NCBI GenBank assembly: GCA_902782465.1
Contig: CACZNH010000005.1
Location: 62,001 to 126,000 of the forward strand
Origin: an uncultured Bacteroidales bacterium
Lineage (GTDB): Bacteria > Bacteroidota > Bacteroidia > Bacteroidales > Muribaculaceae
DNA: 64,000 nt
Direction: 5' to 3'
Shown here: piece by piece, positions 6,953 to 57,142 of the stretch
How positions within the stretch are numbered: the stretch's first letter is position 1
Layout: each line of letters opens with the position of its first letter
Position numbers and translations under genes: made by a program
Notes under the pieces: generated by a model
Databases searched by the model: none
What the model saw: the letters and a program-made list of their open reading frames with translations, nothing else
Told to the model about the DNA's origin: nothing

Positions 6953-6980
6953 GATTAGTGATTAGAGATTAGTGATTAGA
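6953..6980 (+). repeat. Heptad array (4 units, GATTAGT/GATTAGA)
   Basis: Four 7-bp units alternate GATTAGT and GATTAGA between the stop of the dehydrogenase homologue and the ompH-like gene. This is the TTAGNGA version of the TYAGNNN family seen across the window. No inverted right arm is visible. Confidence 0.8.
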
Positions 6981-7015
6981 GAACAAGGATACACATTTAA
7001 TAGATAATAGATAAA

Positions 7016-7519
7016 ATGAAACGTTTTCTCGTCTATACATTGGCCCTGATGCCGCTCATGCTGTTGGCACAGGTCAGAATCGGTATTGTCAACTCACAAC
7101 AGCTTTTTGACCTCATGCCCGAAAAAGCGGCGGCCGAGGCCCAACTCAAGGCACTCAGCGACAGGTATCATGCTGAGCACAACCTGCTGCAAGACGAATT
7201 TGACAAGAAATATGCCGACTACCAGACAATTGCTGCCGACCCCAACACGCCAGAGACCATCAAGGAGCGTCGCGTACAGGAGTTGCAGGAGGGCGACAAG
7301 AAACTGCGCGAGTTTGAACGCATGGTTGCCGATGACCTGGCAGCACGCCGTGAGGCCCTTACCCGCCCCATCGCCGACAAGGTCCAGGCCGCCATCCGCG
7401 CTGCCGGCCAGCAGGGCGCCTTTGACCTGGTACTCGACACCGCTGTCACCCCTGTTGCCTATACAGGTCCCGCCACAGTGGACCTGATGCCCGTGGTCAA
7501 AGCCCTGTTAGGACTTTAA
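7016..7519 (+). CDS. OmpH/Skp-family periplasmic chaperone
   Basis: A 167-residue protein with a signal peptide (MKRFLVYTLALMPLMLLAQ) and then the family start VRIGIVNSQQLFDLMPE. A central charged helical region (about 40-125) would form the Skp tentacle coiled coil, and the C-terminal strand YTGPATVDLMPVVKALLGL is typical of Bacteroidetes OmpH proteins. Skp chaperones unfolded outer-membrane proteins in the periplasm. It stands alone here, away from bamA, so it is probably one of several paralogues. Confidence 0.88.
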   Translation: MKRFLVYTLALMPLMLLAQVRIGIVNSQQLFDLMPEKAAAEAQLKALSDRYHAEHNLLQDEFDKKYADYQTIAADPNTPETIKERRVQELQEGDKKLREFERMVADDLAARREALTRPIADKVQAAIRAAGQQGAFDLVLDTAVTPVAYTGPATVDLMPVVKALLGL

Positions 7520-7625
7520 TCCAACACCTAGGGCTCACTCACAGCAATTATTAAGCTTGGCGTTAAACTTTCAGCGACAGCGTCGGTCTTACGGAAAGCG
7601 TTTTACAAAAAATAATTATGAGACT

Positions 7626-8051
7626 ATGAAGAAGTATTTATTTTTAATGGTCGCATTGCTGACCATGAGTTTCAGTGCCAAGGCCGACCATGACCAGGTG
7701 ATTACCTTTGACCAGTTGCCCGAGGCAGCACAGACATTGCTCAAGCAGTACTTTGCCGGCAAGGTGCCCCTGGTTGTCACCATGGACTGGGATGACTTTA
7801 ACATCGTCTACGAGAGCGGTGAGAAAGTCGAGTTTGACAAGCAAGGCAACTGGAAGGAATTTCAATGCATGGCATCCGGTGTGCCTTCAGAACTGATTCC
7901 CGAGCAAATCAAGAATCACATCAAGGCCACCTTCCCGGGCACTACCATCCTGAAACTTGACCGCAACCGCCGAGGCTATGAGGTGAAGCTCAGCAATGGA
8001 CTGGAGGTTGAATATAACCGAGATTTCCAGGTCATCGACATCGATGACTGA
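7626..8051 (+). CDS. PepSY-like (DUF2874) periplasmic protein
   Basis: A 141-residue exported protein. I chose the ATG at 7626 (MKKYLFLMVALL...FSAKA) because it gives a clean signal peptide; a longer frame upstream does not. The mature protein contains two half-repeats of the PepSY-like fold: DFNIVYESGEKVEFDKQGNWKEF, then GYEVKLSNGLEVEYNRDFQVIDID, each a beta hairpin preceded by a helix (LPEAAQTLLKQYF and VPSELIPEQIKNHI). Bacteroidetes carry many such proteins, which are thought to bind ligands or inhibit partners in the periplasm. It is followed by a paralogue at 8115. Confidence 0.88.
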   Translation: MKKYLFLMVALLTMSFSAKADHDQVITFDQLPEAAQTLLKQYFAGKVPLVVTMDWDDFNIVYESGEKVEFDKQGNWKEFQCMASGVPSELIPEQIKNHIKATFPGTTILKLDRNRRGYEVKLSNGLEVEYNRDFQVIDIDD

Positions 8052-8114
8052 TTTTCATCAAACACCAACTCAGGAGGCCTGCGATAGTGACCTCCTCTTG
8101 TTTTAAATTAAAAT

Positions 8115-8669
8115 ATGATTATGAAATATCTCAAGTTCGCAACATTAGCTTTGTTTATCGGTGCCTTGGCATCGTGCAACAATGGTGGAGACACCGCTCA
8201 AACTCAAAACACAATGCCCGTCGCACAGCAGCAGGTAGCACAGCCTGCCGCACCAGATAGCACAATGGCCCAACAAGCCGCCACCCCGGCAGCTGCTCAG
8301 GCACAAGCCCAGACATCGGCCCTGCCGCAAAACATCGCCGACTTCCTGCAGAAACAATTCCCCGGAGCCACAGTGGCATACGTTGAGACAGATGCCGAGC
8401 ATGGTGGCGTGGAATATGATGTGACGCTCAACGATGGCACCGAGGTCGACTTTGACCGCGCCAATCAGTGGGAACAGGTCGACTGCAAGGTCAAAGCAGT
8501 TCCTGCAGCCCTCGTGCCCGCCGCCATCGCAAGCTATGTCAAGTCCAACAACCAAGGCCTGCCCATCACCAAAATAAGCCGCAAGCCCTATGGCTACGAG
8601 ATTGAACTCAACAACGGCCTGGAGTTGAGATTTGACGCCAACGGCCACTTCGCCGGCATCGACGATTGA
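8115..8669 (+). CDS. PepSY-like lipoprotein, paralogue of the preceding gene
   Basis: A 184-residue protein. The signal peptide ends in the lipobox GALASC, so it should be lipid-anchored. A Q/A/P-rich linker (about residues 30-70) leads to two PepSY-like half-repeats, EYDVTLNDGTEVDFDRANQWEQVDCKV (quoted only to show the pattern in part) and GYEIELNNGLELRFDANG, which closely parallel those of the upstream gene. The start may be ATG 8115 or 8121. The tandem arrangement and similar spacing suggest local duplication followed by divergence into a soluble and an anchored form. A strong terminator follows. Confidence 0.87.
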   Translation: MIMKYLKFATLALFIGALASCNNGGDTAQTQNTMPVAQQQVAQPAAPDSTMAQQAATPAAAQAQAQTSALPQNIADFLQKQFPGATVAYVETDAEHGGVEYDVTLNDGTEVDFDRANQWEQVDCKVKAVPAALVPAAIASYVKSNNQGLPITKISRKPYGYEIELNNGLELRFDANGHFAGIDD

Positions 8670-8704
8670 GCAAATCATGGAATAAACTCCCGCTGTGGTA
8701 AACA

Positions 8705-8739
8705 AAAAAGACCTGCATCGCAATGATGCAGGTCTTTTT
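8705..8739. terminator. Bidirectional intrinsic terminator
   Basis: Perfect 15-bp arms (8705-8719, 8725-8739) with a 5-nt loop, flanked by A5 and T5. It ends the PepSY-like lipoprotein transcript on plus and the tRNA-His transcript on minus. Confidence 0.92.
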
Positions 8740-8742
8740 GTG

Positions 8743-8817
<75 letters not shown>

Positions 8818-8847
8818 ATGTAACGCGTTTTCTTTCAAACGCGGGTG

Positions 8848-8855
8848 CAAAGATA
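8848..8855 (-). promoter_or_regulatory. -7 box for tRNA-His
   Basis: TATCTTTG on the minus strand, 30 nt upstream of the mature tRNA 5' end, is a perfect TAnnTTTG. Confidence 0.6.
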
Positions 8856-8944
8856 ATGCCAATTTTAGAACTGTGCAAGTCTAAATCCAAAAAAACTTTG
8901 ATTTTTTTGTCGGCTGCCGTCTATCCGGTCACGCCAGGAGGGTG

Positions 8945-12148: not shown

Positions 12149-13570
12149 ATGAGACATTCTTTCTGTATGCTGCTGGCGACTGCCGTGTTGCTCATCATGG
12201 GCTCATGCACCGATGAGAACATCGGCGTTTCCATCACCGACAGTGTGTCGTCGGTTATCGAGGACTCATCGTTTGTCATCACCGGTCACTCCGTGCGCAA
12301 CCCCCGTGTGCGCATGAGCACGACCTCCAAGATGCTGGGCCGCATCAGCTCCGATGGTTATGGCCGCCTCACTGCCGAAGCCATCACCATGTGGATGCCC
12401 GCCATAAACATCGACACCGCCGGCGTCAAGTCCGAGTGGATTGACTCATGCCGCCTGAAGCTGCGCGTGCCCGTCAGTGACGGTTTCACGGGCGACTCGC
12501 TGGCCCCCATGCGCCTCTCGGTCTATCGCTTGAACAAGGCGCTGCCCAGCCCCATCTACAGCGACTTTGACCCAACGGGCTACTATGACCCCAACGCCCT
12601 GCTGACCACCGAGTCCTACTCGCCCCTGTCGGGCTGGCTGGAGGTTTCAACCTCCTACCTGACCGGTACGGCCCAATACGATACCGTGCGCGTGATTTCG
12701 GTTCCCATGCCCGTAGAAATCGGCCGCGAGCTGTTCAACATCTATCGCGAACATCCCGAGCGCTTTGAGTCGCCCAATGCATTTGCCGACATATTCCCCG
12801 GCATCTATATCACCAACAGCTACGGCAGCGGCCACGTGGTGAACATCAAGGGCACCGAGTTGGACGTCTATTACCGCAAGCATGTGCAACTGAGCGATAC
12901 CACCGACACGATTTATCCCGCCCAGGCCCAGTCCTATCTGGCGTCCACGCCCGAGGTCGTGTCCGACAACATCATCCGCTACGACGTTGATGACGCCCTC
13001 ACCGAGCTGGCTGACAATGGCGCAGCGCTGATCGTTGCTCCTGCCGGATATGAGGTGCAGCTCCACTTCCCCATCCAGGACATCATCGACAAGTTCAAGG
13101 CCAACGTGGGCACCAACCAGGCCATCATCAACACCCTGTCGCTGGAGTTGCCCGTGACCATCCCTCCCACCCAGTACGACATCCAGCCGCCCACCTACCT
13201 GCTCATGGTCAAGACCAGCAAGAAGGACCAGTTCATCAACGGCGACAGCCTGACGAACAACAAGGACTCTTTCTATGCCCTGTATGACGCGTCAACCAAG
13301 AGTTATACCTTTGGTGGCTTGCGCAATTACGTGCGTGACATCATACAGAACCATGGCGGCATTGCCACCGAGGAGGACATGGAATTTACCATCACGCCTG
13401 TTGACGTGACCACCTACACCTATCCCGCATCCTACTCCTACTATTACACCACAACGTCCAGCTCGATAGTCACCAAGATTTCGCCCATGGTGTCTCGACC
13501 AGCCGTGGCGTGCCTGCAGTTGGACAAGGCGAAATTCAAAATCACCTACAGCAAGCAAATCGTGGACTAA
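12149..13570 (+). CDS. DUF4270 family lipoprotein
   Basis: A 473-residue exported protein. The signal peptide ends at the lipobox IMGSC (Cys about residue 20). The body is beta-rich with the DUF4270 pattern, including an N-terminal SSFVITGHSV region, a ...FNIYREHPERF segment and a C-terminal VVRPAVACLQLDKAKFKITYS-like strand region. DUF4270 proteins are surface or outer-membrane lipoproteins of unknown function and are frequent neighbours of the starch-synthase-like gene. The two genes probably form an operon. A tRNA-Thr gene with its own promoter follows. Confidence 0.88.
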   Translation: MRHSFCMLLATAVLLIMGSCTDENIGVSITDSVSSVIEDSSFVITGHSVRNPRVRMSTTSKMLGRISSDGYGRLTAEAITMWMPAINIDTAGVKSEWIDSCRLKLRVPVSDGFTGDSLAPMRLSVYRLNKALPSPIYSDFDPTGYYDPNALLTTESYSPLSGWLEVSTSYLTGTAQYDTVRVISVPMPVEIGRELFNIYREHPERFESPNAFADIFPGIYITNSYGSGHVVNIKGTELDVYYRKHVQLSDTTDTIYPAQAQSYLASTPEVVSDNIIRYDVDDALTELADNGAALIVAPAGYEVQLHFPIQDIIDKFKANVGTNQAIINTLSLELPVTIPPTQYDIQPPTYLLMVKTSKKDQFINGDSLTNNKDSFYALYDASTKSYTFGGLRNYVRDIIQNHGGIATEEDMEFTITPVDVTTYTYPASYSYYYTTTSSSIVTKISPMVSRPAVACLQLDKAKFKITYSKQIVD

Positions 13571-14318: not shown

Positions 14319-16730
14319 ATGAAGAAATTTTTGCTTTTAGCCTTGACGCTGCTTGCAGCGGTACAGATTTCGGCAGCTCCCGTTGATATGGTATCTGCCC
14401 AAAAGACGGCACAGCTCTTTGTGCAGCAACGCAGTTACAACGGACAACTGCGCGCTCCCCTGTCGGGAAAACTCACACTGGCCCACACCGAGCTGAACAG
14501 CCAGAAGCTGGACCGTGCGGTATTCTACGTCTTCAATACCCCCAACGGATACGTTATCGTGTCGGGTGACGACCGCGCCGAACCTATCCTGGGTTATGGC
14601 GACATGCCGCTGGACATGAACAACATCCCCTGCAACATGCGTGCATGGCTGGGCACCTACAAGGTACAGATTGAGTACCTGCAGGACCATGAGGGCATGG
14701 TGGTCGAGGCTCCGTCGCTGAACGCCCCCTCGCTGCAGATTGCCAACGTTCCTCCCCTGCTGACCGCCCTCTGGGACCAGGAGGCTCCCTACTGGAACCA
14801 GTGCAAAATCAACAACATCCAGTGCCTGACAGGCTGTCCCGCCACGTCGGCAGCGATGGTGTTCTATTACTGGAAATATCCCGACTTTGAAACTCCCGAG
14901 GTTCCTTCCTACCGTTTCAATATGTCGAATGGCTGGAGTTCAAACTATGTGACCGTGCCTGCCCTGCCTCCTGTTACCTTTGATTGGGACAACATGAGGG
15001 ACACCTACACCAGCGGCAGTTACACGACCGTCGAGGGCAATGCCGTTGCCACGCTGATGCGCTATATAGGCCAGGCCGAGCACATGGAATATGGCTCGGA
15101 CGGCAGTGGTGTGGATGCCGACAGTGTACAGCTGATTGTCGATGCGTTCAAGCTCTTCGGCTATGACGAGGAGACCGTGCGCATGGTGAAGAAGACCAGC
15201 TCATACAACGGCGGCACAACCCTGTACACCGACGCTGAGTGGGCAGCCATTATCCAGGAGGAGCTGAGCGAGGAGCGCCCCATCGTGTTCTGCGCCATCA
15301 GCGGCGGCTGGTTTGGCGGTGGTCACGCCTTCAACGTTGACGGCTATGACGCCTCGGCCAACAAGTACCACATCAACTTCGGCTGGAGCGGTTCCTACAA
15401 CAACTACTATGCCCTCAACGCCTTTAACGGCGGTGGCAGCGTGTTCAACCAGTACCAGCAGATGGTAATCGGTATCCAGCCGCCCACCAAGACCCCGCGC
15501 CTGAAACTGAACACCACGACCTTGAACATGGAGTGCTTCAAGGGCCAGTCGGTATCCAGCACCTTCGTACTCAGGGGTATGAACCTGGAGGCTGATGCAA
15601 CGCTGACGCTCGATGACCCCAATGGCGTGTTCACCCTCGACGAGAACACCCTGCCCATGGATGGTGCCAAGGATGGCAAGACCTTCACGGTAACCTACAC
15701 GCCGCTTGCTCCCACTACCTACAGCGCCACCATCACCTGCAGCACTCCCGGCGCCGATGACGTGATGATTACTGTCACGGGTAACTCGCCTTATGAGCTC
15801 TATCGTCCCGAGCTGCTGCCCGCTGATGAGGCAGGTGTTACTGCTACCTCGTTCCGCGCCGACTGGACCGACAACACTCCCACCGAGAATATAGTCAGCT
15901 ACTCGCTGGAGGTGAAGCCTAAGGGTGACATCACGCTGCTCGGCGAGGCCGACTTCAGCGAAGTGCCCCAGGAAAGCACCAACCATGCCTCGGATGCCGC
16001 CAACTATCTGCCCGATGACTGGACCTTTACTGGCAACTTCTTCTACCTTGACGGCGGTTTCATTTCGGCAGGACGCAACTGTATCATCACTGCCAACTGC
16101 AACACGTCGGGCTTTGACAAGGTGAGCGTCATCATCAAGGCCAAGAACTATCCCAAGGGCACCAACACCACGCTGGACATCTACACGTCGGAACAGAGCC
16201 GTACGCTGATTCTTGCAGCCGACGTGAAGACCTATCTGGTTGTCCTCGACGCTGGTGAAGACGGAAAGGTAAACTTCAAATGCGGCTATTATCCCGAGAT
16301 TCAGTCCATCAAGATTTATGGTGGCCTCATCGAGGATGCTGAGCCCTATGCACTGCGTGCTCCGAAGCTGACCGAAGATGACGGCACCATCCTGATTGAG
16401 GGTATTTCGCCTGAGTTGACTTCCTTCAACGTGAGCGGTCTCAATCCCGGCATCACCTACTACTACCACCTGAAGGCCTACTACGTAAACGGCACCGAGA
16501 GCGCTTGGAGCCGCTATCGTGAGGTAACGCTGCTTGAGCAGACCGATATCATGGGTGATGTGGATGGCGATGGCCTGGTAGGTATCGCCGACGTTGCCGC
16601 CCTGATTGACTATCTGGAGAGCGAGGGCACCTTAGAAATCAACCTGCAGGCTGCCGATTTCGACCAGAGTGGTGAAATCAATATCGGTGATATCAGCGCC
16701 TTGATTGACTACCTGCTGAGCATCGAATAG
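14319..16730 (+). CDS. C10 (streptopain-like) cysteine peptidase with C-terminal dockerin
   Basis: An 803-residue secreted protease. It has a signal peptide (MKKFLLLALTLLAAVQISAA), a Spi/pro-domain region (about 25-130: VFNTPNGYVIVSGDDRAEPI), then the C10 catalytic domain with nucleophile Cys173 in CLTGCPATSAAM and catalytic His336 in GGGHAFNVDGYD, followed by HINFGWSG. Two beta-sandwich/Fn3-like regions follow (about 400-740). The last 60 residues are a dockerin-like pair of calcium loops, DVDGDGLVGIADVAALIDYL and DFDQSGEINIGDISALIDYL. It is probably surface-exposed or secreted and involved in protein scavenging. The same dockerin type ends the protein at 35832. Confidence 0.92.
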   Translation: MKKFLLLALTLLAAVQISAAPVDMVSAQKTAQLFVQQRSYNGQLRAPLSGKLTLAHTELNSQKLDRAVFYVFNTPNGYVIVSGDDRAEPILGYGDMPLDMNNIPCNMRAWLGTYKVQIEYLQDHEGMVVEAPSLNAPSLQIANVPPLLTALWDQEAPYWNQCKINNIQCLTGCPATSAAMVFYYWKYPDFETPEVPSYRFNMSNGWSSNYVTVPALPPVTFDWDNMRDTYTSGSYTTVEGNAVATLMRYIGQAEHMEYGSDGSGVDADSVQLIVDAFKLFGYDEETVRMVKKTSSYNGGTTLYTDAEWAAIIQEELSEERPIVFCAISGGWFGGGHAFNVDGYDASANKYHINFGWSGSYNNYYALNAFNGGGSVFNQYQQMVIGIQPPTKTPRLKLNTTTLNMECFKGQSVSSTFVLRGMNLEADATLTLDDPNGVFTLDENTLPMDGAKDGKTFTVTYTPLAPTTYSATITCSTPGADDVMITVTGNSPYELYRPELLPADEAGVTATSFRADWTDNTPTENIVSYSLEVKPKGDITLLGEADFSEVPQESTNHASDAANYLPDDWTFTGNFFYLDGGFISAGRNCIITANCNTSGFDKVSVIIKAKNYPKGTNTTLDIYTSEQSRTLILAADVKTYLVVLDAGEDGKVNFKCGYYPEIQSIKIYGGLIEDAEPYALRAPKLTEDDGTILIEGISPELTSFNVSGLNPGITYYYHLKAYYVNGTESAWSRYREVTLLEQTDIMGDVDGDGLVGIADVAALIDYLESEGTLEINLQAADFDQSGEINIGDISALIDYLLSIE

Positions 16731-16772
16731 TAAGATGAACGTTATCGGGGACACAGTCCCCCTGGCATAAGA

Positions 16773-16818
16773 CAAGGCATCGGACTCCCGTGTGAGAATC
16801 CGATGCCTTGCTTTTTTT
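16773..16818 (+). terminator. Intrinsic terminator after the C10 peptidase
   Basis: Perfect 12-bp arms (16773-16784, 16799-16810) followed by CTTTTTTT. Confidence 0.92.
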
Positions 16819-19173: not shown

Positions 19174-20016
19174 ATGAAAAAGATACAATTAGCACTCATG
19201 CTCCTGGCCACAATGCTGCTGGCCACATCATGTGTAAAGGATAATGTGTATGAGGGACCGTCAAAGATTGAGTCCGTCACGATGACGCCCGAGGCTCCCA
19301 CCTCGTTCGATGACGTTGTGGTTACTGTAGCCGTTTCGGGCCTGCAAGGTGTGAAAAGTGCAACGCTGAATTATAACGCCGCCGGCCAAAAAGCCAGCGT
19401 GCCCATGAACGGCACCGGCAACATCTGGACGGCTACGATTCCCGCCCAGCCCGACGGCACCAAGGTGACCTATACCGTTACTATTGTCAACGATGCCGAT
19501 TACACCAGCGTTTCGCCCGAGAAGGAATATACCGTTGGCGACAAGCCCTCGGACTTCACCAAACTGGTGCTGAATGAGCTCTATGGTGCTGCCGACAACG
19601 ATGCCGAGAAATTCATCGAGCTGTACAACAACGGCGACGACCCCATCAAGCTGAAAGACGTTGTCATCAAGAAGGACGAGGGCGTTGCATGGACTGGACT
19701 GGCCGGTGAGGTCATCATGGGTCACAGCTTCTTCACCATCGTGGGCGCCAAGGGTACCACCGAGCGTGGCATCAGCAGCGGTTTCTCGAGCAAGAAGAGC
19801 GTGCTCATCGAGCTCTATGACCCCAACAACAACCTCATTGACAAGTTCCAGCGCGGCGAGAAGGAAGACGCCTGGGGCAACCAGTCGCTGGCCAAGGTGA
19901 GCGGTTCGTGGAGCCGTTGCCCCAACGGCACGGGTAAGTTCATGATTACCGACGTGACCTCGCTGGGCGAGAAGAATCCCGACACCGGTACCGAGGATCC
20001 TACCGTAGTACAATAA
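19174..20016 (+). CDS. Lipoprotein with Ig-like and lamin-tail domains
   Basis: A 280-residue protein with lipobox LLATSC (Cys about residue 20). Residues 32-125 form an Ig-like beta-sandwich (PTSFDDVVVTVAVSGLQGVKSA). Residues 130-265 look like a lamin-tail domain (LVLNELYGAADNDAEKFIELYNNG...). Lamin-tail domains in bacteria occur on secreted and surface proteins and may bind DNA or glycans. It lies 29 nt after the porin and probably works with it at the outer membrane. The stop codon adjoins a heptad repeat element. Confidence 0.85.
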   Translation: MKKIQLALMLLATMLLATSCVKDNVYEGPSKIESVTMTPEAPTSFDDVVVTVAVSGLQGVKSATLNYNAAGQKASVPMNGTGNIWTATIPAQPDGTKVTYTVTIVNDADYTSVSPEKEYTVGDKPSDFTKLVLNELYGAADNDAEKFIELYNNGDDPIKLKDVVIKKDEGVAWTGLAGEVIMGHSFFTIVGAKGTTERGISSGFSSKKSVLIELYDPNNNLIDKFQRGEKEDAWGNQSLAKVSGSWSRCPNGTGKFMITDVTSLGEKNPDTGTEDPTVVQ

Positions 20017-20115
20017 GGCTTTAGGCTTTAGGTGTTAGGCTTTAGGTGTTAGGCATTAGCGGGCATCCGCATCCCTAAAACCTAATGCCTGATGCCTAAC
20101 ACCTAAAGCCTGACA
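20016..20115. repeat. Symmetric heptad element (6 + core + 6)
   Basis: The left arm is six heptads at 20016-20057 (TTAGGCT, TTAGGTG, TTAGGCA types). The core GGCATCCGC is at 20062-20070. The right arm is six inverted heptads at 20074-20115 (CCTAAAA, CCTAATG, CCTGATG, CCTAACA, CCTAAAG, CCTGACA). The arms use the same words in a different order, so it is not a simple perfect palindrome. Confidence 0.9.
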
Positions 20116-21285: not shown

Positions 21286-21367
21286 TAGTTTTCAGTCTTC
21301 AGTTGAATGCGGATGCCGCTGACAACTGAAGACTGACAACTGACAACTGAAAACTGACAACTGAAAT
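21286..21367. repeat. Heptad element (3 + core + 7) reaching the DASS start codon
   Basis: Left heptads TAGTTTT, CAGTCTT and CAGTTGA (21286-21306), the core in reverse orientation GCGGATGCC (21309-21317), and seven right heptads CTGACAA/CTGAAAA types (21319-21367). The last unit, CTGAAAT, includes the first two bases of the ATG at 21366. Confidence 0.9.
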
Positions 21368-23175: not shown

Positions 23176-23400
23176 TCAGTACTCGTCAGGGTCAAAGAAG
23201 AAGTCATCGTCGTTGGTCGGATAGTCGGGCCAGATGTCCTCGATGGACTCATAGGTATCGCCCTCGTCTTCAATCTCCTGCAGGTTCTCGATGACCTCGA
23301 GAGGTGCGCCACTGCGCACGGCATAGTCGATGAGCTCGGCCTTGGTAGCGGGCCAAGGAGCATCCTCGAGTTTTGTTGCCAGTTCAAGTGTCCAATACAT
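23176..23400 (-). CDS. DUF2795 family small protein
   Basis: A 74-residue acidic protein with the DUF2795 pattern ATKAELIDYAVRSGAPLEVIENLQ, a short helical domain, followed by a Asp/Glu/Phe-rich tail. Such proteins are widespread and conserved in Bacteroidetes; the function is unknown. A minus-strand -7 box TACTTTTG is at 23456-23463. Confidence 0.85.
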   Translation of the reverse strand: MYWTLELATKLEDAPWPATKAELIDYAVRSGAPLEVIENLQEIEDEGDTYESIEDIWPDYPTNDDDFFFDPDEY

Positions 23401-23510: not shown

Positions 23511-23572
23511 CGTTAGACGTTAGGTAGCATTCGCTAACTCCTAACTCCTAACGGCCGCGCCTTGGCGCGGCC
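23511..23572. repeat. Heptad element with variant core and GC-rich palindrome
   Basis: Left heptads CGTTAGA and CGTTAGG (23511-23524), variant core GCATTCGC (23527-23534), right heptads TAACTCC twice and TAACGGC, then the palindrome GGCCGCGC-CTTG-GCGCGGCC (23553-23572). The palindrome ends directly at the stop codon of the cobalamin adenosyltransferase gene. A diverged copy of the palindrome is in the element at 45948. Confidence 0.85.
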
Positions 23573-24133: not shown

Positions 24134-24244
24134 TCAGTTTTCAGTTTTCAGTTTTCAGTCTTCAGTTTTCATTCTTCAGTTGTCAGTTTTCAGTTTTCAG
24201 TTGTCAGTTGTCAGTTGAGTACGGAGGCCGCTGACAACTGACAA
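24134..24244. repeat. Largest heptad array (12 + core + 2)
   Basis: Twelve TCAGTTN-type heptads run without a phase break from 24134 to 24217 (one unit is TCATTCT), followed by a core-like TACGGAGGCCGC and two inverted heptads CTGACAA (24231-24244). It starts 7 bp upstream of the adenosyltransferase ATG, so it would form that gene's 5' leader. Confidence 0.92.
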
Positions 24245-26900: not shown

Positions 26901-26956
26901 TAAGTTTTATGTTTTAAGTTTTATGTTTTAAGTTTTATGTTTTAAGTACGATTACC
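26901..26956. repeat. Alternating heptad array upstream of gntP
   Basis: Six full heptads alternate TAAGTTT and TATGTTT from 26901 to 26942, with a seventh partial unit leading into the core TACGATTAC (26947-26955). The same core follows the array at 27521. No clear right arm. Confidence 0.85.
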
Positions 26957-27514: not shown

Positions 27515-27631
27515 TTAGAGTTTTTAGTTTTAAGTTTTTAGTTTTAAGTACGATTACTATCGCCTAACGCCTAACGCCTAATGCCTAATGCCTAACACCT
27601 AACACCTAACGCCTAACGCCTACCACCTATA
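27515..27631. repeat. Heptad element with two different arm vocabularies (4-5 + core + 10)
   Basis: The left arm is built of TTAGTTT/TAAGTTT heptads (27521-27548, with an out-of-phase unit before it). The core TACGATTAC is at 27549-27557. The right arm is ten inverted heptads GCCTAAC/GCCTAAT/ACCTAAC (27562-27631). The last right heptad contains the birA stop codon (27627-27629). The two arms differ in sequence, so this is not a simple hairpin. Confidence 0.9.
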
Positions 27632-28826: not shown

Positions 28827-28919
28827 TAGTTGTAAGTTTTAAGCAAGATTACTCACTCCACTCTACTCTCTCCACTCTCCACGCTACTCCACTTCAAGTT
28901 TCGGGCTACGAAACTTGAA
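28827..28919. repeat. Heptad element plus hairpin between porX and tsaE
   Basis: Left heptads TAGTTGT, AAGTTTT and AAGCAAG (28827-28847), GATTAC core (28847-28852), then five right heptads of the CTCTCCA/CTCTACT type (28854-28888). A perfect 11-bp hairpin (28893-28903 with 28909-28919, 5-nt loop) follows directly after the porX stop. Confidence 0.8.
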
Positions 28920-36892: not shown

Positions 36893-37357
36893 ATGATTGA
36901 CAAGACCGCACTGGAACAAGTAATCAACGAGGCGCTCGAGGGCACCAAGATGTACCTGGTCACCATCAAGGTGAGCAAGGACAACGTGATTGACGTCGCT
37001 CTGGACAGCGACGAGGACATTACCATCGATGACTGTGTGGCAGTCAATGATGCCGTGCTTGCCGCCTTTGACCGCGATGTGGAGGACTATGAGTTGACCG
37101 TGGGTTCCTACGGCATCACCTCTCCCCTGCTGCTCCCACGCCAGTACCAGAAGAACGTGGGCTATGAGGTCGAGGTCCTGACCGCCGACGGCCGCAAACT
37201 CAAGGGTATCCTGGCGGCAGCCGATGACGAAGGTTTCACCCTCACGATGACCGTGAAGCGCAAGCTCGAGGGCAAGAAGCGCCCCGAACTGGTCGAGGAG
37301 CAGGAGCGATTCAACTACAGTGACATTAGACAAACAAAAAATATCATCAAAATTTAG
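36893..37357 (+). CDS. rimP: Ribosome maturation factor RimP
   Basis: A 154-residue protein of the RimP family needed for 30S maturation. The N-terminal alpha/beta domain has VIDVALDSDEDITIDDCVAVNDAV and the junction DYELTVGSYGITSPL, the Bacteroidetes form of the SPG(L/I)xRPL motif. The C-terminal SH3-like domain begins at GYEVEVLTADGRKLKG. First gene of the classical rimP-nusA-infB operon. Its TAG stop codon is the first three bases of a heptad array. Confidence 0.95.
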   Translation: MIDKTALEQVINEALEGTKMYLVTIKVSKDNVIDVALDSDEDITIDDCVAVNDAVLAAFDRDVEDYELTVGSYGITSPLLLPRQYQKNVGYEVEVLTADGRKLKGILAAADDEGFTLTMTVKRKLEGKKRPELVEEQERFNYSDIRQTKNIIKI

Positions 37358-37436
37358 TTCTCAGTCGTCAGTTCTCAGTTGTCAGCGGCATCCGCTTTCA
37401 TCTGAAAACTGAAAACTGAAAACTGAAAACTGAAAA
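37355..37436. repeat. Heptad element inside the rimP-nusA junction (4 + core + 5)
   Basis: Left heptads TAGTTCT, CAGTCGT, CAGTTCT, CAGTTGT (37355-37382), core GGCATCCGC (37387-37395), right heptads CTGAAAA five times (37102 offset: 37402-37436). The first left heptad contains the rimP TAG stop. The element is within a transcript known in bacteria to be one operon. Confidence 0.92.
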
Positions 37437-38806: not shown

Positions 38807-41608
38807 ATGCCGATAAAGATCAGTAAAGTCATCAAAGATTTGAACGTGGGTAGGCAGACCATCGAAGAGTTCCTCCACAAGAAAGGCATCGAAATCGACG
38901 CCAGCATCAACGCGCGCATCCAGGACGATGTCTATGAAATGCTCGTGAAGGAATTCAAGCCCGATATGGACCTCAAGAGCAAATCGGAAAAAATGGCCTC
39001 CGAGCGACAGAAAGAGAAAGCTAAGCACAGCGCAACCAAGGAAACACAGGAAATCAAGACCGTGATTCCGGGGCAGAAGCCCAAAGTCGTCGGAAAAATC
39101 GAGTTGGATGCCAAGGGGAATCCCAAGACGGCAGCCAAGGCCGAACCCGAAGCGCCCAAACAGGACCAGAAGAAAGCTAAGCCTGCTCCTGTCGAGACAC
39201 CTGCCCCCAAGGCAGATGCAGCACCTGTTGTCGAGCCCGAGCCCGTAAAGGAACCCGAGCCCAAACAGGAAGAGCCTGCACCCGTTCAGGAAACGCCCGT
39301 TCAGATCGAACAGCCCGAAGCACCCTCGACGCCGCAGCCCGAGCCTGCCGCCATCGAGGAGGTCGAGACGCACCCCGACGAGCCCGACGTCTTCAAGCCC
39401 GTATCGGAGACCGTGAGCGGACCACAGCTCAAGGTCGTTGGTAAAATCGAGCTGAGCTCGCTCAACCAGCAGACCAGGCCCCGCAAGAAGACCAAGGAGG
39501 AGCGCCGCAACGAGCGCATCGCCAAGGCTGAAGGCACCAAGCGCAAACGCAAACGCATCGGCAAGGAGAAGGTTGATATCGAGCAGGCCGGCAACCAGCC
39601 CGCCGCACAGCCGCAGGGCAAGTCACGCAGTGGTGCCAAGGATGACCAGGGCAGCAAGCGCGGCAAGGACAAGAAGGGCAACCGCAGGCCCTTGCGTCCC
39701 GAGGTGAGCGAGGAGGACGTTCAGCGCCAGATGAAGGAGACGCTGGCACGCCTCACCGCCAAGAACACCAAGAAGGCCGCCGCAACGCGCCGTCGCGAGA
39801 AACGCGAGGAGATGCGCGAAGAGATGCGTGAGGAAGCCGCACTGGCAGCAGCCCAGAGCAAAATCCTGAAGCTCACCGAGTTCGTTACCGCCAATGACTT
39901 GGCCAGCATGATGAATGTGCCCATCAACAAGGTCATCGCCACCTGTATGAACCTGGGCGTCATGGTGAGCATCAACCAGCGACTCGATGCCGAGACCATC
40001 AACATTGTGGCCGATGAGTTCGGCTTCAAGACCGAATACACGAGTGCCGAGGTGGCCGAGGCCATCAGCGAGGAAGAGGACCGTCCCGAAGACCTCGTGC
40101 AGCGTCCGCCCGTGGTGACCGTCATGGGTCACGTTGACCACGGTAAGACCTCGTTGCTCGACTACATCCGCAACTCTAACGTGATTGCCGGTGAGGCCGG
40201 TGGTATCACGCAGCACATCGGTGCCTATAACGTGAAGCTGCCCAACGGCCGCCGCATCACCTTCCTGGATACCCCTGGTCACGAGGCCTTCACCGCTATG
40301 CGTGCCCGTGGTGCCAAGGTGACCGACATCGTTATCGTGATTGTCGCTGCCGATGACAACGTGATGCCGCAGACCGTCGAGGCGTTGAACCACGCGTCGG
40401 CAGCAGGCGTGCCCATCATCTTTGCCATCAACAAGATTGATAAGCCCAGCGCCAACCCCGAGAAGATCAAGGAAGAGCTGGCCAATATGAACTACCTCGT
40501 CGAGGATTGGGGTGGCAAGTACCAGAGCCAGGATATTTCGGCCAAGAAGGGTATCGGCGTCAGCGAACTGATGGAGAAGGTGCTGCTCGAGGCCGACATG
40601 CTCGACCTCAAGGCCAACCCCAACCGCAAGGCGACGGGTTCCATCATCGAGTCGTCGCTGGACAAGGGCCGCGGCTATATCGCCACCGTGCTCATCGACA
40701 ACGGTACGCTCCACGTGGGCGACATCGTGCTGGCAGGTACCCACTTCGGTAAGGTAAAGGCCATGTTCAACGAGCGTAACCAGCGCATCACCGAGAGCGG
40801 TCCCTCGACCCCGGCTCTGATTCTGGGTCTGAATGGCGCTCCCACCGCCGGTGACAAGTTCAATGTCATGGACACCGACCAGGAGGCCCGCCAGATTGCC
40901 AACAAGCGCGAGCAGCTGCAGCGCGAGCAGAGCCGCCGCACCCAGCACCGTGTCAGCCTCGAGGATATCGGCCGCCGCCGTGCACTGGGTGAGTTCCATG
41001 AGCTCAACTGTATCGTCAAGGGTGACGTGGATGGCTCCATCGAGGCCCTTAGCGACTCGCTCATCAAGCTCTCCACCCCCGAGGTGCAGGTCAACGTCAT
41101 CCACAAGGCCGTGGGTGCCATCACCGAGAGCGACGTTACCCTGGCAGCTGCCAGCGACGCCTACATCATCGGCTTCCAGGTGCGCCCGTCGGCTTCGGCC
41201 AAACGTGCCGCCGAGCAGGAAGGCGTGGACATCCGTCTGTACTCCATCATCTATGACGCCATCGAGGAGGTCAAGAGCGCTATGGAGGGTATGCTCCAGC
41301 CCGACATCAAGGAAGAGGTTACCGGCAGCGCCGAGGTGCGTCAGGTTTACCACATCAGCAAGGTCGGCACCATCGCCGGCGCCATGGTGGTCGAGGGCAA
41401 AATCAAGCGCGGCAGCAAGGTGCGCGTGATTCGCGACGGTATCGTTATCCACACCGGCGAACTCGCATCGCTCAAGCGCTTCAAGGACGATGCCAAGGAG
41501 GTTACCAGCGGCTTTGACTGCGGTTTGAGCCTCAAGTCCTACAACGACCTGCAGGAGATGGACATCATCGAGGCCTTTGAGGAAATCGAGGTCCACAAGA
41601 CCCTGTAA
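38807..41608 (+). CDS. infB: Translation initiation factor IF-2
   Basis: A 933-residue GTPase that delivers fMet-tRNA to the 30S subunit. ATG 38807 gives [27 protein letters not shown], the normal Bacteroidetes start. The N-terminal half is low-complexity Pro/Glu/Lys/Ala, then a basic helix [19 protein letters not shown]. The G domain starts near residue 430 with [28 protein letters not shown] and NKIDKP. Domains II to IV follow to the end ([19 protein letters not shown]). Third gene of the operon. Confidence 0.97.
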
Positions 41609-41610: not shown

Positions 41611-41645
41611 AGGCTTTAGGCTTTATGCCTTAGGCTTTAGGTGTT
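41611..41645 (+). repeat. Heptad array between infB and folK (5 units)
   Basis: AGGCTTT, AGGCTTT, ATGCCTT, AGGCTTT, AGGTGTT in phase from 41611 to 41645, starting 2 nt after the infB stop and ending 6 nt before the folK ATG. No core or right arm. Confidence 0.85.
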
Positions 41646-42588: not shown

Positions 42589-42655
42589 AGCCCCGCAGGG
42601 CCCCTAAAGCCTAAAACCTAAAACCTAAAGCCTAATTCGCATTAGCCCCGCAGGG
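42578..42655. repeat. Direct 23-bp repeats flanking four heptads
   Basis: The 23-bp sequence starting TAATTCGCATTAGCCCCGCA occurs at 42578-42600 and 42633-42655. Between them are CCTAAAG, CCTAAAA, CCTAAAA, CCTAAAG (42603-42630). The left copy is shared with the end of the 9-bp-period element. Confidence 0.85.
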
Positions 42656-45947: not shown

Positions 45948-46034
45948 TCAGTTTTCAGTTTTCAGTTTTCAGTTTTCAGCGGCATCCGCTTACTGACGGC
46001 CACGCCAAGGCGAGGCCCTACAACTGAAAACTGA
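45948..46034. repeat. Heptad element with core and GC-rich palindrome (5 + core + 2)
   Basis: Five TCAGTTT heptads (45948-45979), core GGCATCCGC (45981-45989), then a diverged GC palindrome GGCCACGCC-AA-GGCGAGGCC (45998-46017) followed by CTAC, and two right heptads (46021-46034). The palindrome corresponds to the one at 23553. Confidence 0.88.
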
Positions 46035-51096: not shown

Positions 51097-51117
51097 TTAG
51101 TTTTTAGTCCTCAGTCT
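51097..51117. repeat. Short heptad array (3 units)
   Basis: TTAGTTT, TTAGTCC, TCAGTCT in phase at 51097-51117, in the leader of the DUF4105 gene, followed by AAGCAAGAATAA, which resembles the AAGCAAGATTAC sequence at 28841. Confidence 0.7.
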
Positions 51118-52650: not shown

Positions 52651-52678
52651 TAGTTTTAAGTTGTGAGTTTTAAGTTTT
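52651..52678. repeat. Heptad array (4 units)
   Basis: TAGTTTT, AAGTTGT, GAGTTTT, AAGTTTT in phase from 52651 to 52678, immediately upstream of the GYF_2/CD225 gene. Confidence 0.75.
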
Positions 52679-53656: not shown

Positions 53657-53739
53657 AGGCTTTAGGTTTTAGGCTTTAGGTGGCATCCGCTAACGCCTAA
53701 CGCCTAATGCCTAACGCCTAATGCTTAATGCCTAACGCC
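53657..53739. repeat. Heptad element (3 + core + 7) abutting a stop codon
   Basis: Left heptads AGGCTTT, AGGTTTT, AGGCTTT (53657-53677), core GGCATCCGC (53682-53690), seven right heptads TAACGCC/TAATGCC (53691-53739). The stop codon of the gene at 53739 begins on the last base of the array. Confidence 0.9.
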
Positions 53740-54695: not shown

Positions 54696-54703
54696 CAAAG
54701 ATA
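54696..54703 (-). promoter_or_regulatory. -7 box for the candidate small RNA
   Basis: TATCTTTG on the minus strand, perfect TAnnTTTG, about 7 nt from the predicted RNA start and far from any minus-strand coding start. Confidence 0.6.
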
Positions 54704-54776
54704 CAAATTTGAAAGTTCTCCACACATAACTTTTCAAAACAACTGAAAAGTCTGATATTTCTGAAAGGCATCCGCG

Positions 54777-54892
54777 TTTGATCATTTAAACGACAAGAAA
54801 GACAATAAATACAACTATAACAACTTGAACAATAATCAATTAAATTGTTTATAGTTGTTTGAGTTGTATTTATCTTATTGGAGGCGGATGAC
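54777..54892. repeat. Inverted element with 9-bp period and GGCATCCGC ends
   Basis: Inner arms 54805-54825 and 54853-54873 are 21-bp inverted repeats with two mismatches, built of nine-base units (TACAACTAT, AACAACTTG, AACAATAAT and inverted ATTGTTTAT, AGTTGTTTG, AGTTGTATT). The outer ends are GGCATCCGC (54777-54785) and GCGGATGAC (54884-54892), an inverted copy with one mismatch. The layout is MITE-like, but I see no target-site duplication. Confidence 0.75.
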
Positions 54893-54925
54893 TATCTGAA
54901 TTATCAGAATAATCTTTTGTTTGAA

Positions 54926-55462
54926 TCAGGTGGACTGGTTGAGGCGGGTGAGGGTGGCGAAGTAGATCATGTCGATTTCTTCGTAGGAGAAGTCGGCGCT
55001 GAAGAATTTGCCGGTCTTGAGTTTCAGGCAGTCGGAGAGACGTTGCAGGGCCTGTTCGAACATCTGCTGGTGGTCGAAGGCCAACGGCGGCAGCTGGTCG
55101 ATGCTGAACCAGCGTGCCACACGGGCATCGTCGCCGCCCTGTACGTCCTGGACGCGCGTGAGGGTGAAATAGGCAATGGTGATAACGCGTTCACGCGGGT
55201 CACGGTCGGGCTTGGCAAAGGCGCCCAGCTGCTCGATGTTGGTCACCTGGAGTCCTGTCTCTTCACTCAGTTCGCGCTGTGCACCGTCGGGGGCATCCTC
55301 GTCGATTTTAAGGAACCCGCCGGGAAATGCCCAGCAGCCCTTGTAGGGTTCGACGCCGCGTTCAATAAGCAGCACGTTGAGGTGCAGGCCGTCATAGCCG
55401 AAGACGACACAGTCGGTGGTCACGGCGGGATGGGGATAGCGATAGCAAAAGTTACCTTCCAT
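54926..55462 (-). CDS. Nudix hydrolase
   Basis: A 178-residue Nudix protein with the complete box GGFLKIDEDAPDGAQRELSEETGL (G at the start, REL.EE.G at the end). The N-terminus YPHPAVTTDCVVFGYDG and the WAFPGGF segment resemble ADP-ribose or NrtR-type Nudix domains, but there is no C-terminal winged helix, so an enzymatic role such as ADP-ribose or NUDP-sugar hydrolysis is more likely. Substrate cannot be set. It starts 12 nt after the lipoprotein gene at 55475 ends and probably shares its transcript. Confidence 0.92.
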   Translation of the reverse strand: MEGNFCYRYPHPAVTTDCVVFGYDGLHLNVLLIERGVEPYKGCWAFPGGFLKIDEDAPDGAQRELSEETGLQVTNIEQLGAFAKPDRDPRERVITIAYFTLTRVQDVQGGDDARVARWFSIDQLPPLAFDHQQMFEQALQRLSDCLKLKTGKFFSADFSYEEIDMIYFATLTRLNQST

Positions 55463-55474
55463 AGGACATCATCA

Positions 55475-55960
55475 TTATTTCTCGAGGTAGAAAATCTGCA
55501 TTTCCCGGGTGCTGGCAGGCTTGTCGATGGCCACTGCGGTAAAGGGCACCATCGAGTGGGACATCTTGTCGCCCTTCTTGACATGGTAGCTGAACACCAT
55601 GCAGTCGTTGTCCGTCACCTTGACGTTGACGGGCTTGACGGATGTCGCGCGCTTGGTCTCGGGCAGGATGATGGCCACGACATACTGCTTTTTCCAGTTG
55701 ATTTCGGTGGGCAGGCCGCCCATCGTGGCTGCCATGCCGAAGAAGGCCTCAAAGTCGCGCTTGTTGTCGATGATGAGGCGCTGCTGCTTGGAGCAGTCCA
55801 CATCGTTGCGCACAAAGTAATTCTCCAACGTGGTATAATGGATGGGAGTGGCAACGTCGTCGATTTTCTGTGCCGCATACATTTTGTCCATGAAGGAGCA
55901 GCTGCTGCACAACACGAGCAACAGGGTGCCCAGGGCGAGAGTGATGGTCAGATGTTTCAT
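55475..55960 (-). CDS. Lipoprotein of unknown function
   Basis: A 161-residue protein with lipobox LCSSC (Cys about residue 21), a helical segment, and a beta-rich domain (NYFVRNDVDCSKQQRLIIDNKRDFEAFFGMAATMGG, then YVVAIILPETKRATSVKPVNVKV; patterns given in part). The layout is weakly similar to PrcB-like domains. The start overlaps the meaB stop by 4 nt, so the two are translationally coupled, although no functional link is obvious. Confidence 0.8.
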   Translation of the reverse strand: MKHLTITLALGTLLLVLCSSCSFMDKMYAAQKIDDVATPIHYTTLENYFVRNDVDCSKQQRLIIDNKRDFEAFFGMAATMGGLPTEINWKKQYVVAIILPETKRATSVKPVNVKVTDNDCMVFSYHVKKGDKMSHSMVPFTAVAIDKPASTREMQIFYLEK

Positions 55961-57111
55961 TGCTTGAATTTTTCGTTAGTGATTTTGTCGTAAAAGAAGT
56001 TGAGGACGTCGCTGGCGGCGACAAACGAGGTCTGCTTGCCCGCAAGCACGGTGTCCTCCTTGATGTTGAGCAGTCGCTCGATTTCAGGGTCGAAGTAGAA
56101 ACGCGCCAGCAGCTGCTCGTTGATGGTCTCGCGCATCCAGTAGCGCTCCTGCTCGTGGCGCTTCTCGTCGAAGTAGCCGCTGGCCTTGACGTGGGCAAAG
56201 TAGCGGTCGATCATGTCCCATACCTTGTCGATGTCCAGGTCGTAGTAGCCCGAGTAGGTAATTACCTCGGGCAGGAAGCCGCTGGGAGGCAGCGGATAGA
56301 GGTGTAGGGCGTTGCGGAACTGGGCCGCGGCGAGTTTGGCGCGCTCGATGTTGTCGCCGTCACACTTGTTGATGACGATGCCGTCGGCCATCTCCATGAT
56401 GCCGCGCTTGATGCCCTGCAGCTCGTCGCCCGTGCCGGCCAGCTGGATGAGCAGGAAGTAGTCCACCATCGAGTGGACGGCAATCTCGCTCTGTCCCACG
56501 CCGACGGTCTCGACAAAGATGGTGTCATAGCCCGCAGCCTCGCACAGCACGATGGTCTCGCGCGTCTTGCGTGCCACGCCGCCCAGTGATCCGGCCGAGG
56601 GGGAAGGGCGGATGAACACGTCGGGCTCGACGGCGAGGCGTTCCATGCGCGTCTTGTCGCCCAGGATGGAGCCTTTGGAGCGCTCGCTGCTGGGGTCGAT
56701 GGCCAGGACCGCCAGTTTGTGGCCCTGCTTGATGACGTGCATACCGAAAGCGTCAATCGAGGTGCTCTTGCCCGCGCCGGGAACTCCCGTGATGCCGATG
56801 CGGCGCGAGTTGCCCGTGTAGGGCAGGCACTTCTCGATGACCTCTTGGGCGATGATTTGGTGCTCGGCGTTGCGGCTCTCGACGAGCGTCACCGCCTGCC
56901 CCAGCACGGCACGGTCACCCTTCAGGATGCCCTCGACAAACTCGGCAGGCGTGAGTTGTGGTTTGCGCTTGCGTTTCAGGTAAGGGTTGACGGTGGGCAT
57001 CTGCTCCACGCCGCTGTTCACCTGCAGCCCTGCGTACTGGTCATCGTTTTCGGGATGCTGCATCGAGGGGCATTCCTCGGTATTGTGTTGTACTATCTTT
57101 GTTTTAGCCAT
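55957..57111 (-). CDS. meaB: Methylmalonyl-CoA mutase-associated GTPase MeaB
   Basis: A 384-residue G3E GTPase that loads and protects adenosylcobalamin on methylmalonyl-CoA mutase. Motifs: Walker A GITGVPGAGKSTSIDAFG, switch DPSSERSKGSILGDKTRM, ETVGVGQSEIAVHSMVDYFLL, and the base motif NKCDGDN. A 60-residue N-terminal extension and a C-terminal helical arm (about 305-384) are normal for the family. The mutase genes are not in the window; the adenosyltransferase at 23573 could supply the cofactor. Confidence 0.96.
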   Translation of the reverse strand: MAKTKIVQHNTEECPSMQHPENDDQYAGLQVNSGVEQMPTVNPYLKRKRKPQLTPAEFVEGILKGDRAVLGQAVTLVESRNAEHQIIAQEVIEKCLPYTGNSRRIGITGVPGAGKSTSIDAFGMHVIKQGHKLAVLAIDPSSERSKGSILGDKTRMERLAVEPDVFIRPSPSAGSLGGVARKTRETIVLCEAAGYDTIFVETVGVGQSEIAVHSMVDYFLLIQLAGTGDELQGIKRGIMEMADGIVINKCDGDNIERAKLAAAQFRNALHLYPLPPSGFLPEVITYSGYYDLDIDKVWDMIDRYFAHVKASGYFDEKRHEQERYWMRETINEQLLARFYFDPEIERLLNIKEDTVLAGKQTSFVAASDVLNFFYDKITNEKFKQ

Positions 57112-57114
57112 ATT

Positions 57115-57142
57115 TCAGTTGTCAGTTTTCAGTTGTCAGTTG
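57115..57142. repeat. Heptad array (4 units) containing a stop codon
   Basis: TCAGTTG, TCAGTTT, TCAGTTG, TCAGTTG in phase at 57115-57142. The minus-strand TGA stop of the DUF1573 gene is 57136-57138, the first three bases of the last unit. The array also fills the leader of meaB. Confidence 0.9.

What the first reader, a model, noticed from the sequence alone, without database searches (positions are those of the whole stretch)
6953..57142. A window-wide family of intergenic tandem arrays with a strict 7-bp period (TYAGNNN)
At least sixteen gaps carry arrays with a 7-bp period, although their sequences look unrelated at first (TCAGTTT, TTAGGCT, TTAGTGA, TAAGTTT, TAGAGTG). All reduce to TYAGNNN or AAGNNNN on one arm and its inverse NNNCTRA on the other. 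Positions: 6953-6980, 20016-20115, 21286-21367, 23511-23572, 24134-24244, 26901-26956, 27515-27631, 28827-28888, 37355-37436, 41611-41645, 42603-42630, 45948-46034, 51097-51117, 52651-52678, 53657-53739, 57115-57142. The period is shared while the three variable bases are not. That suggests a process that generates or maintains seven-base units, rather than copies of one mobile sequence. I know no named repeat class with this description.
Basis: seen in the sequence. Interest (0 to 1): 0.88.

Follow-up and report, generated by a model that had tools for sequence, protein, structure and literature searches.

The report
Seven-base repeats between operon genes
In this uncultured gut bacterium, many gaps between neighbouring genes of one operon are filled by runs of seven-base units, often two mirror-image runs around a small shared core, that come and go quickly between related species and may help separate one gene's stop from the next gene's start.

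Summary
The strict 7-bp period is nearly all intergenic; the unit is THAG plus three bases, or its inverse. Arrays favour gaps between co-directional genes (97 of 451 sampled; 8 of 71 convergent, 5 of 69 divergent). In the sense direction the TYAGNNN arm starts at the upstream stop codon and the NNNCTRA arm ends at the next start. A third to a half of array gaps hold both arms. Two cores recur at many loci (11-mer 41 times, 13-mer 16), so 'not copies of one sequence' is half right. In core-I gaps the two arms match in words; two-arm gaps fold, single-arm gaps do not fold more than gaps without arrays. One orthologous gap is 3-23 bp in some relatives and 56-115 bp, often array, in others; genomes have word 'dialects'. 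Heptad arrays before start codons (TAACTGA) and heptad hairpins are known, so this is a new variant of a known kind. I favour copied core elements whose arms grow by 7-bp slippage and that act as spacers in polycistronic mRNA. Copying, slippage and mRNA action are inferred; a tolerated selfish repeat is not excluded.

The parts
6953..6979 (+). Stop-side arm only, (TTAGTGA/TTAGAGA)4, 10 bp after the stop of the gene ending at 6942
20021..20113 (+). Two-arm element: TTAGGCT/TTAGGTG arm from the stop codon, core with GGCATCCGC, then CCTAA arm
   Evidence: the G023 gap has period-7 CTAGGGT units instead
21291..21364 (+). Two-arm element, TCAGTTN arm, core I (21309-21319 on the minus strand), AACTGA arm ending at the ATG of the symporter gene
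   Evidence: sister species G023 has a terminator-like hairpin (by eye) in this gap
23511..23572 (-). Two short arms TTAGGAG / CTAAC around GCGAATGC, next to a GGCCGCGCCAAGGCGCGGCC palindrome
   Evidence: no array in the G023 gap
24134..24244 (-). Two-arm element with a 12-unit AACTGA arm ending 7 bp before an ATG
26901..26947 (-). Start-side array of TAAGTTT/TATGTTT units (CTTAAAA-type in sense)
27515..27631 (-). Chimeric element: TTAGGCG-type stop-side arm, core II (27552-27564), ACTTAAA/ACTAAAA start-side arm
   Evidence: sister species keeps a core-II-like segment with other words
28827..28888 (-). Irregular CTCCACT run; period 7 found but the THAG motif is not met
   Evidence: absent from the motif list
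37355..37436 (+). Two-arm element with core I (37385-37395) filling the rimP-nusA gap
   Evidence: orthologous gap 3-23 bp in 16 of 46 loci, 11 bp in G023
41611..41645 (+). Stop-side arm only, TTAGGCT units, in a 43-bp gap that is 1 bp in sister species G023
42603..42630 (+). CCTAAAR array in a 743-bp gap
45948..46034 (-). Two-arm element, core I (45979-45989), with an inserted GGCC..GCCAAGGC..GGCC palindrome
51097..51117 (-). Three units TTAGTTT/TTAGTCC/TCAGTCT
   Evidence: (period 14)
52651..52678 (-). Start-side AAAACTT array just before an ATG
53657..53739 (-). Two-arm TTAGGCG / CCTAAAG element around GCGGATGCC
57115..57142 (-). Start-side CAACTGA array ending at ATGGCTAAA

Best explanation
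They are intercistronic repeat elements. A short dispersed core (type I GCGG-CAT-CCGC, type II GGCGATAGTAATCGTAC) is copied into gaps between genes of one operon, and its flanks grow into two inverse arrays by gain and loss of 7-bp units, with one arm often missing or swapped. In the polycistronic mRNA they would act as a spacer between stop and next start: the stop-side arm (TTAGNNN) offers stop codons in all three frames, the start-side arm (AAACTGA) is A-rich, and where both arms are present they fold into a long imperfect hairpin closed by the core. Shown: position, orientation, arm matching (not for core II), recurrent cores, turnover, dialects. Inferred: copying of cores, slippage as the source of the unit, that the gaps are operon-internal, and the effect on mRNA.
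For: Own genome, 27% sample: arrays in co-directional gaps 97 of 451, convergent 8 of 71, divergent 5 of 69; for gaps of 50-400 bp 81/255, 6/48, 4/54 (p 0.005, 0.0002). A runs nearer the stop in 59 of 62, B runs nearer the start in 58 of 72; order A-B in 33 gaps, B-A in 1. B arrays lie within 30 bp of 54 of 451 co-directional starts but 1 of 138 divergent starts; gaps with a promoter-like TAnnTTTG have arrays in 12 of 74, those without in 69 of 181. Words of the two arms match within a gap (47 gaps, 0 of 10,000 permutations as high; 23 core-I gaps 0 of 10,000). Two-arm gaps fold (z<-2 in 71% of 38; 29% of 119 co-directional gaps without arrays). In the rimP-nusA gap 9 type-I sequences show 6 pairs with changes on both sides (11 of 500 shuffles reach it) and 9 such cells (0 of 500); gaps there without a three-unit run still fold (L080 z -4.2, L081 -4.5, L093 -3.9). 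Stop-side arms carry an in-sense stop in 53 of 62 (start-side arms read in mirror 39 of 72); start-side variable bases are 71% A against 29% for stop-side arms in mirror. Cores recur. Six sister genomes: A runs nearer the stop 26 of 30, B runs nearer the start 28 of 40.
Against: 62 of 97 array gaps have >=3-unit runs of one orientation only (47 of 97 if two-unit runs count), and single-arm gaps fold no more than gaps without arrays (22% of 27 against 29% of 119). Core-II gaps show no arm matching (9 gaps, 9,433 of 10,000), and five core-II-type sequences of one gap show no covariation beyond shuffles. The co-directional preference is weak in six sister genomes: 48 of 294 co-directional gaps against 13 of 89 others; at 50-400 bp 39/168 against 8/65, p 0.07, with stretches of four genomes chosen at listed matches. 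In G024 the order B-A also occurs (4 of 10 array gaps are BA or ABA). Rapid change, also before nusA, fits neutrality as well as function. G255 shows only start-type runs, in 4 of 89 co-directional gaps, and G065 none in 41.
Confidence: 0.43

Rival explanations
1. Selfish or neutral interspersed repeats (REP/MITE-like): cores spread as mobile or gene-converted copies, and copies survive only where they break neither promoter, terminator nor gene, that is, mostly in operon-internal gaps. Position preferences then reflect purifying selection, not a role.
For: Recurrent cores; volatile copy number within the genus, 0 to 681 four-unit matches in 61 genomes; depletion in promoter and terminator gaps; word dialects per genome; fast change at orthologous gaps.
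Against: No RAYT link: the number of PF01797 matches of any length does not track heptad counts (Spearman 0.29, p 0.16, 25 genomes), and neither of the two RAYT-like genes examined (of five PF01797 matches) has heptads or the exact cores within 1.5 kb. In two gaps the array runs from stop to start although the sister's gap is only 1 or 11 bp, which random insertion would rarely hit. Stop-side and start-side arms differ in composition.
Confidence: 0.37
2. Purely local slippage: any stop- or start-adjacent TAG/TGA-containing heptad is expanded in place by polymerase slippage with a 7-bp preference, with no dispersal and no function.
For: Strict 7-bp register; TAG stop codons enriched at array gaps (33 of 97 against 31 of 324), as if the stop seeds or is supplied by the array.
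Against: Shared cores at unlinked loci, matched inverse arms, and 88 of 113 segments with TYAG where 11% is expected of random heptads.
Confidence: 0.08
3. Translation-regulator or ribosome binding sites before start codons, as proposed for TAACTGA repeats in Beggiatoaceae (PMC4679880).
For: Start-side arms end within 14 bp of the ATG in 49 of 72 runs, most often at 5 bp; A-rich units suit a phylum without Shine-Dalgarno signals (PMC6847099, abstract). Single-arm arrays need no hairpin.
Against: B arrays are near 54 of 451 co-directional starts but 1 of 138 divergent starts (six sisters 27 of 294 and 2 of 82), so they are not a general 5'-leader signal; it leaves the stop-side arm unexplained.
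Confidence: 0.1
4. Intrinsic terminators or assembly artefacts.
For: Two-arm gaps fold (71% with z<-2), though less often than convergent gaps without arrays (82% of 28); the sister species has a terminator-like hairpin in one such gap.
Against: TTTTT within 20 bp after the last start-side unit in only 2 of 47 two-arm gaps; arrays are rare in convergent gaps; heptads occur in a single-contig genome.
Confidence: 0.02

Closest known systems
TAACTGA direct repeats of marine Beggiatoaceae, some Cyanobacteria and five Bacteroidetes (MacGregor 2015, PMC4679880; abstract, sections 9, 10 with 11-12, 24, and passages read)
   Same: Heptads of the form NNNCTGA, intergenic, in the BOGUAY genome most often just before a start codon; one Bacteroidetes set lies right after a stop in reverse orientation; relatives can have shorter gaps without repeats; indels mostly in 7-nt steps between two Cyanothece strains.
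   Different: There one word is studied, related heptads are rarely repeated in that genome, one of 170 sets is inverted, and the repeats are not predicted to form RNA structure; here many words of a degenerate THAG motif, two inverse arms, recurrent cores and stop-to-start coverage.
Heptanucleotide repeats GGGNATC of Xanthomonas and Nostoc (PMC4692102; passages read)
   Same: Heptads spread over the genome, over-represented in non-coding DNA, closer to the 5' neighbouring ORF, mostly between ORFs of one direction, very variable between relatives.
   Different: G-quadruplex words; no core and no inverse partner mentioned in the passages I read.
Cyanobacterial STRR repeats and the P6b heptads of the Nostoc tRNA-Leu intron (PMC3488679, one passage read; STRR definition recalled)
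   Same: Degenerate heptads of one RNA that base-pair into a hairpin and vary by repeat number.
   Different: Inside an intron, not between operon genes.
REP/BIME elements with RAYT transposases (PMC2817692 seen in a search listing only; definition recalled)
   Same: Extragenic, palindromic, many copies, variable between strains.
   Different: Arms are 7-bp tandem arrays of varying words; no RAYT linkage found here.
BrickBuilt minisatellite-MITE of Porphyromonas gingivalis (PMC4596501, abstract read)
   Same: Bacteroidales intergenic element with a tandem repeat between parts that carry small inverted ends.
   Different: 23-nt unit, 19 copies in one strain, 49-591 nt from genes, with promoter activity.

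Membership tests
Intergenic heptanucleotide tandem repeats (LSSR/STRR/TAACTGA kind) | Tandem 7-nt units, dispersed in many intergenic places | tested here: met
   117 period-7 segments, 113 intergenic, in 27% of the genome
TAACTGA direct repeats | The word TAACTGA itself dominates and related heptads are rare as repeats | tested here: not met
   Commonest start-side words are AAACTGA, CAACTGA and AAACTAA; TAACTGA is not among the 25 commonest
TAACTGA direct repeats | NNNCTGA-type heptads ending just before start codons | tested here: met
   58 of 72 B runs (CTDA units) nearer the start, median 9.5 bp
REP/BIME | Conserved palindromic unit in many extragenic copies | tested here: inconclusive
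   Core I 41 exact 11-mer copies (control 4); of 30 fetched, 15 are within 4 mismatches over 27 bp, and several of the rest look like coding sequence by eye
REP/BIME | Associated RAYT gene flanked by the repeats | tested here: not met
   No heptads or exact cores within 1.5 kb of two RAYT-like genes (the other three PF01797 matches were not looked at); no count correlation over 25 genomes
Intrinsic terminator | Hairpin followed by a T run, at transcript ends | tested here: not met
   TTTTT follows in 2 of 47 two-arm gaps; convergent gaps 8 of 71; transcript ends themselves not testable
Known Rfam RNA family | Match above gathering score | tested here: not met
   Window: three tRNAs only

The most novel reading that the evidence does not exclude
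A genome-wide, heptad-registered intercistronic signal system: a trans-acting RNA-binding factor, or an enzyme that adds or copies seven-base units, reads or writes TYAGNNN/NNNCTRA arms between the stop of one cistron and the start of the next, and its changing specificity explains why the genomes compared in this genus each have their own dialect shared by unlinked loci.
Probability: 0.15. Interest if true: 0.88.

Novelty: new variant of a known kind. Interest (0 to 1): 0.6.

Why it matters
Why seven is a favoured unit of long bacterial simple repeats is an open question. Here one genus offers many orthologous gaps in all states (empty, one arm, two arms, other hairpin), closely related species that differ in them, and shared cores. 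That makes origin (slippage against copying), concerted change of words, and any effect on coupled translation in a phylum without Shine-Dalgarno signals directly testable.

Tried and rejected
RAYT transposase as the mover: PF01797 counts do not correlate with heptad counts and no arrays flank the two genes looked at. First arm test by duplex energy: 263 of 5,000 permutations were as good as the true pairing (about p 0.05); it is confounded by arm length and was replaced by the word-match test. General translation enhancer: not supported by the divergent-start comparison. Terminator: 2 of 47 two-arm gaps have a T run. Known RNA family: none in the window. Covariation in the core-II set: no signal. 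Distant genomes: G199 gave 1 period-7 segment in 100 kb, G256 none in 15 kb, and G255 start-type runs only, so the two-arm layout is shown only within the genus. REP survey PMC12306157: one passage seen, nothing on heptads. Gene calls are my own codon-usage caller, so start positions and 'co-directional' labels are approximate; operons were not tested by transcripts.

Literature: searches list no paper whose title or abstract start describes paired heptad arms from stop to start; the library lacks most subscription journals.
Full report
Check of the observation. TRF gives period 7 (once 14) at all 16 listed places, and reading them in sevens shows the units. My motif scan (three or more THAG+3 units, or the inverse) marks 15 window gaps; 28827-28888 fails it. 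Genome-wide the 3-unit TYAGNNN pattern occurs 467+581 times against 40+35 for its reversed control. In 859,732 bp (27% of 3,130,512 bp), 117 motif-free period-7 segments were found, 113 intergenic, against 1 to 6 at periods 8, 10, 11 and 13 and 18 at period 9; 88 of 113 contain TYAG, and 16 of the other 25 contain TAAG. The lag test on 464 kb supports the claim at lags 7, 14 and 21, though lag 3 is higher still in z.

Anatomy. In this genome arrays favour gaps between co-directional genes: 97 of 451, against 8 of 71 convergent and 5 of 69 divergent; all 15 window gaps are co-directional. Read in the sense of the genes, TYAGNNN arms start a median 3.5 bp from the upstream stop (nearer the stop in 59 of 62) and NNNCTRA arms end a median 9.5 bp from the next start (nearer the start in 58 of 72). 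Layouts by runs of three or more units: A-B 33, B only 35, A only 26, A-A-B 1, B-B 1, B-A 1; counting two-unit runs, 47 of 97 gaps hold one orientation only. TAG stops are enriched at these gaps (33 of 97 against 31 of 324), as if the array often supplies the stop. B arrays lie within 30 bp of 54 of 451 co-directional starts but 1 of 138 divergent ones; A arrays within 30 bp of 55 of 451 co-directional and 7 of 142 convergent stops; arrays are rarer in gaps with a promoter-like TAnnTTTG, a motif recalled for the phylum (12 of 74 against 69 of 181). This points to operon-internal gaps, which transcripts would have to confirm.

Replication in relatives. Six sister genomes: A runs nearer the stop 26 of 30, B runs nearer the start 28 of 40, but G024 also has B-A orders. 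The gap preference is weak there: 48 of 294 co-directional gaps against 13 of 89 others; at 50-400 bp 39 of 168 against 8 of 65 (p 0.07). B arrays lie near 27 of 294 co-directional and 2 of 82 divergent starts. Stretches of four of the six were chosen at listed matches, so frequencies are biased.

Two cores. GCGGCATCCGC occurs 41 times (control 1+3) and GGCGAYAGTAATC 16 times (control 0) in the genome. Of 30 core-I loci fetched, 15 are within 4 mismatches of a 27-bp consensus; the other 15 include sequences that look coding and elements with other words or partial matches. All 16 core-II loci are within 5 mismatches of a 37-bp consensus that runs into the ACTTAAA or ACTGAAA arm, while the left side varies; three (L202, L204, L210) look by eye like complete inverted forms. 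In 47 A-B gaps the arms share words more than permuted pairs (1.82 against 1.33 of 4 positions, 0 of 10,000); this holds for 23 core-I gaps (0 of 10,000) and 15 others (33 of 10,000) but not for 9 core-II gaps (9,433 of 10,000). Pairing at TYAG is complete by selection of the units; it falls to 0.28 (TCAG) or 0.20 (TTAG) at the seventh base, so the helix is often interrupted once per heptad.

Structure. Among gaps of 50-180 bp, two-arm co-directional gaps fold with z below -2 in 71% of 38, single-arm ones in 22% of 27, those without arrays in 29% of 119; convergent gaps without arrays in 82% of 28; the one convergent two-arm gap does not (z 0.3). So in co-directional gaps hairpins belong to two-arm copies. 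They are not terminator-like: TTTTT follows in 2 of 47.

Turnover. The window's array at 37355-37436 fills the rimP-nusA gap (Pfam). In 46 loci (30 of 58 matching genomes, plus 16 named records; 42 different) this gap is 3-23 bp in 16, a heptad array in 15 and other filling in 15; at least 6 changes between empty and filled are needed on a nusA tree, of which starred branches force 2. The nearest named relative (98% NusA) carries a different word family in the same gap. Of the window's array gaps, six had both flanks in G023: two hold heptads of other words there and four none (88 and 11 bp at rimP-nusA, 43 and 1 bp at 41608, 172 and 79 bp at 23400, and a terminator-like hairpin before the symporter gene). 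Of 27 distinct filled rimP-nusA gaps folded, 21 have z below -2 and one prints -2.0. Nine type-I sequences, chosen by their core and folded on the window's structure, give 6 pairs with both-side changes (11 of 500 shuffles reach it), 9 such cells (0 of 500) and covariation 0.141 (1 of 500), but no excess of further pair types (414 of 500); five type-II sequences give no signal.

Dialects and spread. In 61 genus genomes four-unit counts run from 0 to 681, and 52 have at least one. Words are more alike within than between seven genomes (A arms 11 of 5,000 permutations, B arms 1 of 5,000; own arrays capped at 20 per arm). Across the phylum 211 of 395 genomes have a four-unit match, but the reversed control is also high in some, so other heptad motifs exist. 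Two-arm architecture outside the genus is not shown.

Mechanism. Shown: place, direction, cores, matching, turnover, dialects. Inferred: copying of the core element, 7-bp slippage of the arms, and action in mRNA. Stop-side arms carry in-sense stops in 53 of 62 arrays against 39 of 72 for start-side arms read in mirror; start-side arms show no such difference (61 of 72 against 52 of 62). Start-side variable bases are 71% A against 29%. That fits a stop curtain and an A-rich landing zone in a phylum lacking Shine-Dalgarno signals (PMC6847099, abstract), but purifying selection on a tolerated repeat could give the same.

Known relatives. TAACTGA repeats (PMC4679880) are the nearest; the heptads of Xanthomonas and Nostoc (PMC4692102, passages) and the heptad hairpin in the Nostoc intron (PMC3488679, one passage) show that both heptad arrays and heptad hairpins are known. 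The proposal that seven reflects polymerase contact is Mrazek's, seen as cited in those papers. What I have not seen in print (searches in Tried and rejected) is the paired arms around shared cores from stop to start.

Noticed in passing
23553-23572 and about 45997-46017: Another small palindrome of the form GGCC-nCGCCAAGGCGn-GGCC is embedded beside heptad arms here, and a similar one lies in the own-genome gap at C1:135831; possibly a third core.
   Followed up: no
L001 around 12,363-12,576 and L014 around 16,697-16,792 (own genome C1 and C2): A GACGCAAGATTTTGCGTCTCTAC hairpin occurs in both gaps next to heptads.
   Followed up: no
L075, L077, L098 (rimP-nusA gap): An 84-bp filling without heptads but with predicted hairpins; L075 and L077 differ in the stem sequence. 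Perhaps a decayed or different element in the same slot.
   Followed up: partly
L115 (Muribaculaceae record JAIEAO010000058.1, rimP-nusA gap): A relative with 74% NusA identity also has heptads (TTAGGAG and ACTTCTC) in the same gap.
   Followed up: no
G317, G212, G447 and others: The reversed control pattern (GAYT heptads) is common in some Bacteroidota genomes, so heptad arrays with other motifs exist.
   Followed up: no
2369-2414: Tandem 14-bp TTCGTTGCGAA-containing units between genes, a different intergenic repeat.
   Followed up: no
G029 (same order, another family): 37 four-unit matches on at least seven contigs, with words such as TCAGCTC and TTAGCGT.
   Followed up: no
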